DNA from: Lachnospiraceae bacterium
Lineage (GTDB): Bacteria > Bacillota > Clostridia > Lachnospirales > Lachnospiraceae
NCBI GenBank assembly: GCA_017482485.1
Contig: JAFUMV010000125.1
Location: 1-60,610, forward strand
Reading direction: 5' to 3'
Length of the DNA: 60,610 nucleotides
The translations under genes and the position numbers were made by a program. Shown piece by piece: positions 47,389-51,355 of this stretch. Position 1 is the stretch's first letter; the number at the start of each line of letters is the position of its first letter. The notes under the pieces were generated by a model. The model saw nothing but the letters and a program-made list of their open reading frames with translations. It did not search any database and had not been told where the DNA came from.

Positions 47389-49122
47389 TCATTCTGCCTC
47401 CTCTTTATCTTTCTGAGAATAATAAATTTCCTGATAAGCTCTGCAGCTCTTAATCAGCTGTGCGTGCTTGCCGAAGCCCACAATTTTGCCGTCATCCATA
47501 ACCACAATGTTATCCGCATCAATGACGGAAGAGATGCGCTGGGCAATGATGATTTTGGTAATACCCGACATGTCTTCCTGCAGAGCTTTGCGGATAGAGC
47601 TTTCCGTTGCGGTATCAACGGCGCTGGTGGAGTCATCAAGAATCAGGATTTTCGGCTTTTTTAAAAGCGCGCGGGCAATGCAGAGGCGCTGCTTCTGGCC
47701 GCCGGAGAGATTTACGCCGCCCTGCCCAAGTTCAGTTTCATAACCATTTGGGAAAGAGACGATAAAACCGTCTGCAGCTGCAATTTTTGCCGCACGCCGA
47801 ATTTCGTCCATGGAAGCGTCTTCGTTTCCCCAGCGCAGGTTTTCTGCGATTGTGCCGGAAAAAAGCGTATTTTTCTGTAAAACCATGGCTACGCTTTCGC
47901 GCAGATGAAAAAGGGAATAATCCCGTACATCAGTGTCATCCACAAAAACCCTGCCCTCGTCTGCATCATAAAGACGGGGAATCAGGGAAACCAGGGTGGA
48001 CTTGCCGCTGCCGGTGGAACCGATGATGCCCACGGTTTGGCCGCCTTCAATGGTCAGATTGATCTGATCCAGCACCTTCTGGGTGTTATCCTTGAAATAA
48101 CGGAAGGAAACATTTTCAAAAGTGATTTTTCCGCTTTTAACTTCTTTTTCTTTATGAGCCGCATGCTCATCCGTCAGGTCAAGATCAGCGTTAAGCACTT
48201 CTGTGATTCGCCGGTCGGATGCTGCCGCACGGGTACCCTGCAGGACGATATTTGCCAGAAAGTTCAGAGCGGTAAGTATCTGGGAAAGATAAGTGATGAA
48301 TGCGGTCAGTGTGCCCAGCTCCATGCTGCCCACCATGATCTGTTCGCCTGCAAACCAGACAACGGCCAGGGTGGTGACATTGACAGCCAGAGCGGATACA
48401 GGCTGCATCAGAAGCATCATTTTTAATGCCGAAGTGCTCTTTTCTACCAGTTCATCATTCACGACAAAAAACTTTTTCTTTTCAAAATCTTCCCGGACAA
48501 AAGATTTGATGACGCGCTCGTTGGTGATGGTTTCGCCGACGCTGTTATTGAGCTGATCGATTTTCTGCTGCATCACCGTATAGCGGGGAGATGCGGTTTT
48601 GATGATCAGCGCAATTGCCAGCCCCAGAATGGGAACCACAATGAAAATGACCATTGCCAGCTGCGCATTTAAGGAAAAGGACATAATCAGCGCACCGATG
48701 AGCATGACCGGGCTTCTGAAAAAGCCGCGCAGAAGCGTCTGAACGAAGTTCTGGATCTGGGTGATATCATTGGTAATTCGCGTGATCAAAGACCCGGTGG
48801 AAAAATCATCGATGTTTGCAAAAGAAAACTTCTGAATCTGCCGGAAGGTGTCCTCTCTGACGCCGGCGGCCAGCCGCGCGGCTCCGCGAATTGCGAAATT
48901 TGCTCCTAAAACGCCGGTTGCCATCATGCTGAGTGCGATCAGAAACATGTAGATGCCGTTTTCAATAATATAAGGAATATCCCGGTTAGCGGCACCGTAG
49001 TTGATAATATTGGCATTAATATAGGGCAGAATAAATTCTCCGCTGGCTTCCAGAACCATAAAAATTGGTCCCAGAAGGAAAGAATACCAGTATTTTTTGA
49101 TGTAGGGAGTATATTTACGCAT
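47389..49122 (-). CDS. ABC exporter subunit A with degenerate Walker B
   Basis: 577 residues, six membrane helices then an ATPase domain. Walker A IGSTGSGKST, signature LSGGQKQR and switch IAQRIS. Walker B reads ILILDDSTSAVD: the catalytic Glu is Asp and the H-loop His is Gln, so this ATP site is of the non-hydrolysing kind seen in asymmetric heterodimeric exporters. Together with the canonical partner this matches BmrCD, LmrCD and TM287/288. It overlaps the TetR gene by 8 bases, so expression is tied to that regulator. Confidence 0.92.
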   Translation of the reverse strand: MRKYTPYIKKYWYSFLLGPIFMVLEASGEFILPYINANIINYGAANRDIPYIIENGIYMFLIALSMMATGVLGANFAIRGAARLAAGVREDTFRQIQKFSFANIDDFSTGSLITRITNDITQIQNFVQTLLRGFFRSPVMLIGALIMSFSLNAQLAMVIFIVVPILGLAIALIIKTASPRYTVMQQKIDQLNNSVGETITNERVIKSFVREDFEKKKFFVVNDELVEKSTSALKMMLLMQPVSALAVNVTTLAVVWFAGEQIMVGSMELGTLTAFITYLSQILTALNFLANIVLQGTRAAASDRRITEVLNADLDLTDEHAAHKEKEVKSGKITFENVSFRYFKDNTQKVLDQINLTIEGGQTVGIIGSTGSGKSTLVSLIPRLYDADEGRVFVDDTDVRDYSLFHLRESVAMVLQKNTLFSGTIAENLRWGNEDASMDEIRRAAKIAAADGFIVSFPNGYETELGQGGVNLSGGQKQRLCIARALLKKPKILILDDSTSAVDTATESSIRKALQEDMSGITKIIIAQRISSVIDADNIVVMDDGKIVGFGKHAQLIKSCRAYQEIYYSQKDKEEAE

Positions 49123-49690
49123 GGTTTTGTCCCTCCTTTAAGTGATCTAAAAATCCCTGAATGACAAGTTGATAGGTTTCTTCTTTGGTGGCCGGACCGC
49201 GCTGCATAAAGCCATTACCGGTCAGCTCCACAAATCCGTGCATGAAGGAGCGCAGACTGCGCAGAAAGTGCAGCGTGCCGGGCTCCCCCAGACCGTAGCT
49301 TCTGATGACATCACGCAGCGGGGCGAAGCTGGCGAATGCCGCTTTTACAATTTTTTCATCATCGGATGCGGGCATGCGGATCAGTGCTCTGTAAAGTTCA
49401 TGATTACTCCGGGCAAAATTGAGATAGGCCAGCGTGCCGTCCAAAAAGGCGGTGTCTCTGTCCTTGCCGTTTACGGCTTTGTCCAGAACTTCATGAAGCA
49501 TATCTGCGGCGTGAAGTGCCACCAGGGAATTGATTTCCTCTATGCCCTGTACAAAATTGTAGAGCGAGGAAGGTTTTACATCCAGGCGGCTGGCCAGTTC
49601 GCGGAGAGAAAAGTTTTCATAGCCTTTTTCTTCCACGAGCGCAACGGCAGCCTGGAGAATGGTGCTCTGATTTAATCCTTTTTTCGGCAT
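49115..49690 (-). CDS. TetR family regulator of the ABC exporter
   Basis: 191 residues. The N-terminal helix-turn-helix reads ILQAAVALVEEKGYENFSLRELASRLDVKPSSLYNFVQ; the C-terminal part resembles the WHG-type ligand domain (TLHFLRSLRSFMHGFVELT). It is first in the operon, overlaps the exporter gene and has two operator-like palindromes over its own promoter, so it most likely represses the operon and is released by an exporter substrate. GGAGG precedes ATG 49690. Confidence 0.87.
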   Translation of the reverse strand: MPKKGLNQSTILQAAVALVEEKGYENFSLRELASRLDVKPSSLYNFVQGIEEINSLVALHAADMLHEVLDKAVNGKDRDTAFLDGTLAYLNFARSNHELYRALIRMPASDDEKIVKAAFASFAPLRDVIRSYGLGEPGTLHFLRSLRSFMHGFVELTGNGFMQRGPATKEETYQLVIQGFLDHLKEGQNHA

Positions 49691-49740: not shown

Positions 49741-49789
49741 GAAAACTAACACTGTTCATATTATATGCTAACACTGTTAGTTTTCGCAA
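49741..49789 (-). promoter_or_regulatory. TetR operon promoter with double operator
   Basis: On the minus strand TTGCGA (complement of 49784-49789), 18 bases, TATAAT (complement of 49760-49765). The perfect palindrome CTAACACTGTTAG (49768-49780) fills the spacer and a near copy CTAACACTGTTCA (49746-49758) covers the start point, 22 bases away. The outer arms GAAAACTAACACTGTT and AACACTGTTAGTTTTC make one larger near-palindrome. Confidence 0.82.
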
Positions 49790-49905: not shown

Positions 49906-50256
49906 GAGCATGTAAATCCATGTTTTATATATTTCTACATGCTCTTGTCCTCCTCACAATTGGGAGTTGAGCATGTAATTTTTACTATTTGAAACTTTTA
50001 CATGCTCAAATCTATTCTTAGAATATTGAAGAGCATGTAATTTCTGAATATTTGAAATTTTACTTGCTCAGTTTTATGATTTTAAAACATTTTCAGCATG
50101 TAATTTGGAAAAGTTTGAGATTCTACATGCTTTTTTGAATTTTTTTCTTGTTTTTGGGCATGTAGATTAAAAATTTTTGCTTAATTACATGCTTTTGTAC
50201 CGTTTTTGTATTATTTCGAGCATGTAAAATTGTTGTTTTCTCAGATTTGCATGATT
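49906..50256. repeat. Array of six 39-nt imperfect palindromes
   Basis: Units start at 49906, 49969, 50031, 50094, 50156 and 50218. Each is exactly 39 nt, begins GAGCATGTAA or a close variant and ends TTACATGCTC or a close variant, with a variable AT-rich centre. Spacers are 23-24 nt and unrelated. The left and right half-sites thus alternate about every 31 bases. The last unit is the most degenerate. The 698-base gap 49691-50388 contains this array, the TetR promoter, and otherwise no gene. Much richer in A and T than the surroundings. Function unknown. Confidence 0.9.
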
Positions 50257-50388: not shown

Positions 50389-51234
50389 TTACTTCACCGG
50401 AGCATTCCCCGGTTCCCTGCGAAACTGGGACGGTGTCAGCTGAAACTGCTTGCGGAACTGGTGGCAGAAGGAAGCGCTGTCCGTAAAGCCGCAGGAGTTT
50501 GAAATTTCCGTGATTTGAAGGGTGGTGGAGGACAGAAGCTGCTTCGCCATGGAAAGCCGGTAGCTGATCAGAAACTGCTGGGGAGAAGTTCCCAATTCCC
50601 GCAAAAAAAGCTTATACAAATAAGTTCTGTCAATGCCCACATGGTGTGCCACATCCTGAATTCGAATATCATAGGCATAGTTGTGCTGGATGTAGTCGAT
50701 GGCCTGATTGATATAGCTGGTAGAAGATTTCTGGACATCGTCACCCGGCGGAAGCATCAGTGAGAACAGCCGGTAAAGCAAAGACAGGTGCAGATAGCTG
50801 TTGCCGGGCTCTGCCAGCAGTGCGTCATTGATGGAAAGAATGGTTTCTCCTACTGGAAAGCACTGGTGGGTGCCGGCAAAAGGAACTGTCATAACGCTGT
50901 GAAACACCGGATTCTCCGCATTGAGCATACAGGTATCCAGCGTATTTTTCACATCGCGGCCGTCAAAGCCGATCCAGCAGTATTCCCAGGGAGTATCTTC
51001 GCTGGACATATAGCTGGAAACGATGCCGGGCACGATCAGAAAGGCATCTCCGGCAGAAAGATGCCAGGTGCGGCCTGCACTGGTGAAGCTTCCGGTGCCG
51101 GAAAGGACAAAATGCAGAAGGTAATGGGGCCAGATGCCGGGACCGCAGGCATGTTTTTTCACCGTCTGTTCATGACCGCTGAAAAAAATGCGCATGGGCA
51201 AAGAGGCATTGGGCTGTGCTGAAGCTTGAGGCAT
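50389..51234 (-). CDS. AraC family regulator, divergent from GH36
   Basis: 281 residues. N-terminal cupin with HFVLSGTGSFTSAGRTWHLSAGDAFLIVPG; C-terminal helix-turn-helix pair with IRIQDVAHHVGIDRTYLYKLFLRELGTSPQQF and ITEISNSCGFTDSASFCHQFRKQFQLTPSQFRR. It resembles RafR/MsmR-type activators of alpha-galactoside genes. ATG 51234 follows GGGAGGAG; the frame is open to 51333 without a start signal. Divergent placement before the GH36 gene makes it the probable activator of that gene. Confidence 0.88.
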   Translation of the reverse strand: MPQASAQPNASLPMRIFFSGHEQTVKKHACGPGIWPHYLLHFVLSGTGSFTSAGRTWHLSAGDAFLIVPGIVSSYMSSEDTPWEYCWIGFDGRDVKNTLDTCMLNAENPVFHSVMTVPFAGTHQCFPVGETILSINDALLAEPGNSYLHLSLLYRLFSLMLPPGDDVQKSSTSYINQAIDYIQHNYAYDIRIQDVAHHVGIDRTYLYKLFLRELGTSPQQFLISYRLSMAKQLLSSTTLQITEISNSCGFTDSASFCHQFRKQFQLTPSQFRREPGNAPVK

Positions 51235-51313
51235 GAGAACGCTCCTCCCTACGTTGGCAACATAAATACAATAAAATGAAACACGGGTTAATTTTCTTTT
51301 CCTCAGTATAAAG

Positions 51314-51319
51314 TATAAT
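51314..51319 (+). promoter_or_regulatory. -10 box of the GH36 gene
   Basis: TATAAT preceded by AG, 36 bases before the start. No recognisable -35 box is present at 17 bases, in keeping with an AraC-activated promoter. Confidence 0.5.
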
Positions 51320-51355
51320 ATTAAAAAAAGCAATTTACATACAGGAGGTTTTACT

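What the first reader, a model, noticed from the sequence alone, without database searches (positions are those of the whole stretch)
49906..50256. Array of six 39-nt palindromes with 62-63-nt period and conserved ends only
Units of exactly 39 nt with GAGCATGTAA at one end and TTACATGCTC at the other recur with 23-24-nt unrelated spacers. The centres vary, so it is not a CRISPR array. The twelve half-sites alternate in direction and stand about 31 bp apart, close to three helical turns, so they would all face one side of the DNA. The stretch is far richer in A/T than its surroundings and holds no gene. It could be a cooperative protein-binding platform (partition, silencing, looping or recombination), or a chain of small structured RNAs. 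I know of no described element with this pattern.
Basis: partly seen in the sequence, partly recalled or inferred. Interest (0 to 1): 0.86.

Follow-up and report, generated by a model that had tools for sequence, protein, structure and literature searches.

The report
Nuclease-linked, helix-phased palindrome arrays
A row of evenly spaced, mirror-image DNA signals in a bacterium turns out to belong to a family of scattered DNA arrays in related bacteria, and in four genomes one of the arrays sits beside a small nuclease-like gene that probably reads them.

Summary
The array is real: six 39-nt units, twelve alternating half-sites (core GCAWGTA), period 62-63. Its genome holds three more arrays and a lone unit; I catalogued 27 arrays in eight genomes: seven of one family by the tool, the eighth Pseudobutyrivibrio (Lachnospiraceae). 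Core GCATG and half-sites about three helical turns apart are shared; bases beside the core differ by genome. Most same-direction spacings are six turns (109 of 148 are 62-64). In all 13 units with A at the core's A/T position it is one-sided, so these look like protein sites, not RNA stems. A PD-(D/E)XK-like nuclease gene abuts arrays in G000, G179 and G365. I predicted that further homologs abut arrays; in 603 kb fetched next, the only homolog, on a contig chosen for its arrays, has one 57 nt upstream and another downstream. In three genomes the array at the nuclease carries the half-site of the dispersed arrays. Best reading: a repeat/enzyme pair that works like REP/RAYT, with an unrelated nuclease and helix-phased arrays. 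Binding and mobility are inferred. Eight literature searches showed no description.

The parts
49906..50256 (.). whole array: six 39-nt inverted-repeat units, twelve alternating half-sites, period 62-63 nt
49906..49944 (.). unit 1: GAGCATGTAA-N19-CTACATGCTC
49969..50007 (.). unit 2: GAGCATGTAA-N19-TTACATGCTC, the only unit exact at both ends
50031..50069 (.). unit 3: GAGCATGTAA-N19-TTACTTGCTC; its centre resembles, in reverse, unit 4 of the array beside the nuclease gene (18 of 21 nt)
50094..50132 (.). unit 4: CAGCATGTAA-N19-CTACATGCTT
50156..50194 (.). unit 5: GGGCATGTAG-N19-TTACATGCTT
50218..50256 (.). unit 6: GAGCATGTAA-N19-TTGCATGATT; near-copy of a lone unit on contig C56 of the same genome (92% over 48 nt)

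Best explanation
The array is a DNA platform of about twelve half-sites for a sequence-specific protein that sits on one face of the helix, about one copy per three turns, in inverted pairs. The protein is most likely the roughly 280-290-residue PD-(D/E)XK-like nuclease encoded elsewhere in the same genome (contig C5), directly behind a sister array with the same half-site. Array and nuclease form a dispersed-repeat/cognate-enzyme pair that works like REP/RAYT: enzyme and half-site diverge together by lineage, and arrays come to occupy new intergenic sites over time. Shown: the array, its geometry, its dispersal, its absence at the matching sites found in relatives, adjacency of nuclease gene and array in four genomes (one gene copy broken), and the same half-site at the nuclease locus and at dispersed loci in three. 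Inferred: that the nuclease binds the half-sites, that it spreads or maintains the arrays, and what the host gains or loses.
For: Protein site rather than RNA: 13 of 44 units have A instead of T at the fourth base of the core on one side, 0 on both; that stem pair fails in 8 of 19 and 6 of 19 sequences with no compensation. Helical phase: 36 of 44 within-unit spacings are 28 and 8 are 27; 34 of 35 between-unit spacings are 34-35 and one is 25, ten less; a one-turn-short step also in G242, and 52-53 periods in G303. Family: a GCATG-based pattern has 8-37 hits in 6 of 397 family genomes and 1-2 hits in 24 more; the reversed control has 9 hits, one in each of 9 genomes. Partner: nuclease homologs in the DNA fetched by then lay beside arrays in G000, G179 and G365 and nowhere else; prediction noted, then 602,588 nt fetched: the one homolog (E 2.6e-61) lies 57 nt from one array, with a second array about 680 nt beyond the gene. 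Chance of a gene end within 60 nt of an array edge is about 0.002 (all loci) to 0.007 (array loci), taking 36 arrays. Nuclease assignment: among three homologs, PADLOC PDC-S68 at the C-terminus (3 of 3, best 6e-26), HEAT_CxxC_PD-DEXK (1 of 3, 2.5e-4), PHROG endonuclease (2 of 3, best 2.8e-4).
Against: No binding or cleavage was measured. The prediction test was not on random DNA: 30 of the 40 stretches were G365 and G525 contigs taken by number and gave no homolog; the homolog came from one of 10 stretches that I added on contigs with array or pattern hits. No homolog was found in the fetched parts of G366, G242, G525 and G303, so the link is untested there. The G365 gene is broken and at a contig end. 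No target duplications or common ends prove movement of arrays; the one clean empty site (G368) could be a deletion in G368. No PDB sequence matched and the catalytic lysine of PD-(D/E)XK was not located. Five of the 13 one-sided changes are in one array (A1) and probably one inherited event; with independent sites about one double change is expected, so 0 speaks against pairing but does not test independence. 39 of 148 same-direction distances are not 62-64, and the 33 outside 61-65 are less coherent (R 0.52 at 10.5 bp against 0.80 for all). A half-site in front of A1 is out of phase (29 instead of 35).
Confidence: 0.6

Rival explanations
1. The arrays are a platform for an unrelated host protein (chromosome organisation, silencing or partition, in the manner of the F-plasmid centromere); the nuclease gene merely tends to settle beside such arrays.
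For: The F centromere is a tandem array with one inverted repeat per 43-bp period (passages of PMC9178275); the eight arrays of G000 and G366 lie between the longer open frames.
Against: Patchy by genome: 6 of 397 family genomes with many hits; the exact G000 half-site pair is absent from 12 same-genus genomes. The array at the nuclease locus shares the lineage-specific half-site. No genome-wide search for partition genes was made.
Confidence: 0.2
2. The arrays are transcribed and act as chains of RNA hairpins.
For: Both strands of the window array fold better than shuffles (z -7.8 and -9.1); the covariation score of the unit stem exceeds all 500 shuffles and all slid controls, as does that of the stem across the spacer; three spacers of array A1 also look like hairpins.
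Against: Inverted symmetry alone gives good folding; the paired changes are at columns outside and just inside the core, which differ between the two genera, and the central stem position is broken without compensation. Spacer lengths mostly keep helical phase. Rfam gave only matches far below the families' thresholds.
Confidence: 0.06
3. A defence or toxin-like nuclease kept in check by its arrays: the array at its promoter is an operator, and dispersed arrays titrate it or mark self DNA.
For: Array upstream of the gene in G000, G179 and G274; C-terminus matches phage-defence candidates PDC-S68 and PDC-S69.
Against: In G365 the array is at the 3' side of the (broken) gene, and in MT839528 the repeats are downstream. 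Neighbouring genes were not scanned for defence functions (one search failed and was repeated for the nuclease only).
Confidence: 0.2
4. Remnants of a miniature transposable element mobilised by an ordinary transposase, with the nuclease beside it by chance.
For: An empty site in G368; near-copies of single units at different loci.
Against: Most centres and spacers of arrays in one genome are no more alike than shuffles; I saw no target duplication at the one empty site, and array ends were not compared systematically; adjacency to the nuclease recurred in four genomes.
Confidence: 0.1

Closest known systems
REP / REPIN repeats with RAYT (REPtron)
   Same: Dispersed palindromic repeats; enzyme gene flanked by its own repeat type; repeat type differs by lineage with its enzyme (abstract and passages of PMC3686654; passages of PMC3733652).
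   Different: The neighbour is a PD-(D/E)XK-like nuclease, not a HUH tyrosine transposase; no constant GTAG tag; units are not perfect hairpins; arrays are long and phased to the DNA helix.
F-plasmid partition site sopC (parS-F)
   Same: Tandem array with an inverted repeat in each unit: twelve 43-bp repeats, each with a 16-bp inverted repeat (passages of PMC9178275); 43 bp is about four turns (my arithmetic).
   Different: Here the arrays are dispersed, with free spacers and half-sites 28-32 nt apart; no partition gene was seen among the flanking proteins scanned (ten proteins).
PADLOC phage-defence candidates PDC-S68 and PDC-S69
   Same: The C-terminal nuclease-like part of the array-linked protein matches them.
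   Different: PDC-S68 profiles are about 1200 residues and match only near their end; PDC-S69 is of similar length (289) but matches weakly (1.4e-5). Whether their members have arrays was not examined.

Membership tests
REP/RAYT (REPtron) | neighbouring gene encodes a Y1 HUH tyrosine transposase | tested here: not met
   No Pfam match for the G000 and G179 proteins even at E 5; matches are to nucleases.
REP/RAYT (REPtron) | repeat is a hairpin with a GTAG tag at one end | tested here: not met
   The base after GTA is G in 10 of 50 half-sites of G000; the central stem position is uncompensated; half-sites of the other genomes mostly continue differently.
REP/RAYT (REPtron) | enzyme gene flanked by the same repeats that are dispersed in the genome | tested here: met
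   G000 array A1, G365 C77 (gene broken), G274 C19. In G179 only one array is known.
CRISPR array | near-identical direct repeats with unique spacers of constant length | tested here: not met
   In the window array half-sites alternate in direction and both kinds of interval vary in sequence. cas genes were not searched for.
Structured RNA repeat | compensated changes in the stem | tested here: not met
   0 of 13 changes at the A/T position compensated. Changes at outer columns do pair, but follow the split between two genera.
ParABS centromere | par genes beside the array | tested here: inconclusive
   Flanking open frames listed and ten scanned with Pfam: none partition-like; no genome-wide search for par genes.
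PD-(D/E)XK nuclease superfamily (the linked protein) | profile similarity and conserved acidic motifs | tested here: met
   Matches; SK-E, PDF and EH-G motifs kept in the four full-length homologs.
PD-(D/E)XK nuclease superfamily (the linked protein) | nuclease fold and activity | not testable with these tools

The most novel reading that the evidence does not exclude
A new kind of genome-resident pair: a PD-(D/E)XK-like nuclease and its dispersed, helix-phased arrays of inverted half-sites, with several array specificities coexisting in one genome (GCATGGG, GCCACGTA and GCG[T/C]AGGC types in G365), which are spread or kept by the nuclease in Lachnospiraceae and kin, functionally parallel to but independent of REP/RAYT.
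Probability: 0.45. Interest if true: 0.9.

Novelty: categorically new. Interest (0 to 1): 0.82.

Why it matters
The best-described case of bacterial repeats kept and spread with a dedicated enzyme is REP/RAYT. A second, unrelated solution, with a rigid three-turn spacing that predicts the shape of the protein-DNA complex, would open a new class of site-specific DNA-binding nucleases with changeable specificity, and offers a direct test of how such repeats survive in chromosomes.

Tried and rejected
Searches with the array outside whole genomes led nowhere: Rfam gave only matches far below threshold; plasmids none; phages one match of 37 query bases without half-sites around it; viral contigs 0 for three array patterns and one contig for the general pattern, which is a different, AAGCATGCTT-type repeat. 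The genome-contig scan gave five loci: two are the Pseudobutyrivibrio arrays; L022, L024 and L026 are not arrays of this kind.

Shared genes around the arrays of G000 and G366: one weak protein pair, away from the arrays. An Lrp-type octamer (sites about 31 bp apart, recalled, not looked up) was set aside because each half-site is asymmetric and strictly alternates. An AraC-type binder was considered because of the neighbouring gene; no evidence.

MT839528's downstream repeats (9 GTTGC/GCAAC in 379 nt; 0.74 expected by my own arithmetic for uniform bases) are irregularly spaced, so I count this case as suggestive only. The tables use units that I placed at the expected spacing, degenerate ones included, and the 27 regions were bounded by me. 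In one search, 42 of 299 genomes passed E 0.01, G000 among them; I fetched surroundings for 14 of the other 41 and had 3-kb loci for some more; arrays were seen in G242, G274 and G303 only. G274's 54-nt step starts from the GCATGC of a reverse half-site; the true forward-to-forward distance is 84. Viral-contig searches for the nuclease found none. In one search two of the eight G179 hits are on C35, where no array was found.

Full report
Observation. The window holds six 39-nt inverted-repeat units at 49906-50256, in a 698-nt gap between an AraC-type gene (50389-51333, minus strand) and a TetR-type gene (49115-49690, minus strand). Cores GCATGTA and TACATGC start 28 nt apart inside a unit and 34-35 nt apart between units. 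Chance is excluded. The stretch is A/T-rich.

The array is not alone. In its own genome (G000, 3.48 Mb, 153 contigs, window = contig C99) the same half-site forms three more arrays on contig C5 (930-1376, 52430-52777, 68543-68818) and a lone unit on C56, beside what looks to me like the end of an insertion sequence. In 25 units (50 half-sites) C, A and G of the core CAWG are nearly invariant and its third base is A or T, never G or C. The exact two-half-site pattern was absent from 144 other genomes, 12 of them of the same genus. A scan of GTDB contigs found the same geometry in Pseudobutyrivibrio sp. MD2005 (Lachnospiraceae; handle G366), which has four arrays with the half-site TTGCAWGTAW; 115 relatives of it had none (single 3-mismatch hits in five of them, at control level). 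The handles G000, G179, G242, G274, G303, G365 and G525 are one family by the tool; that this is Lachnospiraceae too is inferred.

DNA site, not RNA. Over 44 units in the two genomes, 13 have A for T on one side and none on both; one more has C on one side. In a gap-free alignment of 19 two-unit segments the corresponding stem pair fails in 8 of 19 and 6 of 19, and across the spacer in 9 of 19, never compensated. Against this: the whole stem scores above all shuffles and slides for covariation, and the array folds well on both strands. The paired changes are in the columns outside and just inside the core, which differ between the two genera, as expected if both half-sites follow one protein. 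Centres are poorer in GC than spacers, which suggests that the 39-nt inverted pair is the bound unit.

Helical phase. Period 63 is six turns. Between-unit spacings are 35 (27), 34 (7) and 25 (1) of 35; the exception is ten shorter, one turn. A similar short step (54 between forward cores) occurs in one G242 array, a distance of 84 (eight turns) in one G274 array, and periods of 52-53 in the G303 array. Of 148 same-direction distances of 40-200 nt in 27 arrays, 109 are 62-64; the resultant at 10.5 bp is 0.80 for all and 0.52 for the 33 outside 61-65. One half-site in front of array A1 is out of phase.

A family with changing half-sites. A sequence-only model of the two-unit segments, run on 299 family genomes, led to arrays of the same spacing but other half-sites in G242 (AGCATG[G/T]TA) and G274 (GGCATG[T/C]CTTTTT), and to G303 (GCATG[T/C][G/A]AAAAT). 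The general pattern GCATG-N24-26-CATGC-N26-28-GCATG on 397 family genomes gave many hits in six (G000 11, G179 8, G242 14, G274 15, G365 26, G525 37), 1-2 hits in 24, and 9 control hits in 9 genomes. In all I catalogued 27 arrays in eight genomes, with 274 cores in 8,864 nt where 17 are expected. A detector that knows no motif found no array in 366 kb of the same-genus genome G011, but found arrays of other half-sites in G365 (GCCACGTA; GCG[T/C]AGGC) with period 64-65, so one genome can hold several types.

Gain and loss. In the two same-genus genomes where a flanking gene of the window array was found (TetR locus of G011, AraC locus of G001) no array was found there, and the other flanking gene was not matched beside it. 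For array A3 the left-hand gene was matched in G010 and G011 and the right-hand gene on another contig of G011. At one Pseudobutyrivibrio locus the genes on both sides of the array are neighbours in G368, with 47 nt between the aligned ends instead of 475, so about 430 nt with the array were gained in MD2005 or lost in G368. Another array lies in a gene-content hotspot upstream of what I recognise as a his gene. Near-copies of single units at distant loci (window unit 6 and C56; window unit 3 and array A1 unit 4 reversed; 18 of 21 centre bases each, shuffle maximum 16) suggest exchange of units.

The partner. Array A1 is followed directly by a gene for a protein of up to 290 residues (ribosome-binding site 4 nt behind the last half-site). 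In the DNA fetched by then its homologs lay beside arrays in G179 (array upstream) and G365 (array at the 3' side; gene broken, contig end) and nowhere else. I noted the prediction that further homologs abut arrays and fetched 40 more stretches, 602,588 nt: 30 from G365 and G525 by contig number, which gave no homolog, and 10 on contigs with array or pattern hits. The only homolog, on contig C19 of G274, has an array 57 nt upstream and another about 680 nt downstream of the gene, with a 99-residue open frame between. In G000, G365 and G274 the half-site at the nuclease locus is that of the dispersed arrays. A record from human faeces filed as phage (MT839528) holds another homolog with irregular GTTGC repeats downstream. 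Pfam shows nothing, and NCBIfam only two matches far below cut-off. Nuclease and phage-defence profiles match the C-terminal half, as do eight plasmid records annotated mostly as AAA ATPases or helicases. No PDB sequence matches.

Mechanism. I infer that the nuclease binds the inverted half-sites, two per unit, and assembles along one helical face; and that, as in REP/RAYT, the array at its own gene ties enzyme and repeat together while further arrays occupy other intergenic sites. Whether the nuclease cuts, copies or only holds the arrays is open. Regulation by titration and self-marking for defence remain possible.

Known kinds. REP/RAYT shares the layout (abstract and passages of PMC3686654; passages of PMC3733652, in whose main text words beginning Firmicutes or Clostridi do not occur) but differs in enzyme, tag and hairpin. 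sopC shares the tandem inverted-repeat design (passages of PMC9178275). Eight literature searches (others listed papers, of which I saw titles and abstract starts, apart from the passages named; two found none) showed no description of this element. Most subscription journals and preprints are not covered.

Noticed in passing
window 49741-49785: Inverted repeat GAAAACTAACACTGTT / AACACTGTTAGTTTTC (94% complementary) in front of the TetR-type gene, probably its operator; a similar one precedes the homologous gene in G011.
   Followed up: no
L281 465-830, L288 6306-6699, L314 7309-7600 (all G365): Arrays with other half-sites (GCCACGTA; GCG[T/C]AGGC) and period 64-65 in one genome; no nuclease homolog found on these stretches.
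   Followed up: partly
L274 9723-10137 (G274): Tandem array TTACCTGCA...TGCAGGTAA with period 75 beside a GCATG-type array.
   Followed up: no
L016 1378-1420 and L272 310-345: Two of the nuclease genes have a strong ribosome-binding site with no in-frame ATG, GTG or TTG at the usual distance; the start may be a rare codon.
   Followed up: no
L056 16645-19584: TOTE-type primase-helicase gene (AEP-TOTE, E 2.4e-73) between two arrays of Pseudobutyrivibrio sp. MD2005.
   Followed up: no
L059 480-1240 and L134 1471-2477: The stretch upstream of a his-type gene holds different small genes in MD2005 and G368, a gene-content hotspot.
   Followed up: partly
L016 930-1376: Three spacers of array A1 are themselves hairpin-like (AGAAGCC...GGGCTT) and resemble each other.
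   Followed up: partly
L026 4205-4331: Bacteroidales contig end with a 21-nt tandem repeat holding GCAAGTATACATGCA, unrelated in geometry.
   Followed up: no
L277 664-4296: Record from human faeces filed as phage with a 1211-residue open frame that carries the same nuclease motif near its end.
   Followed up: no
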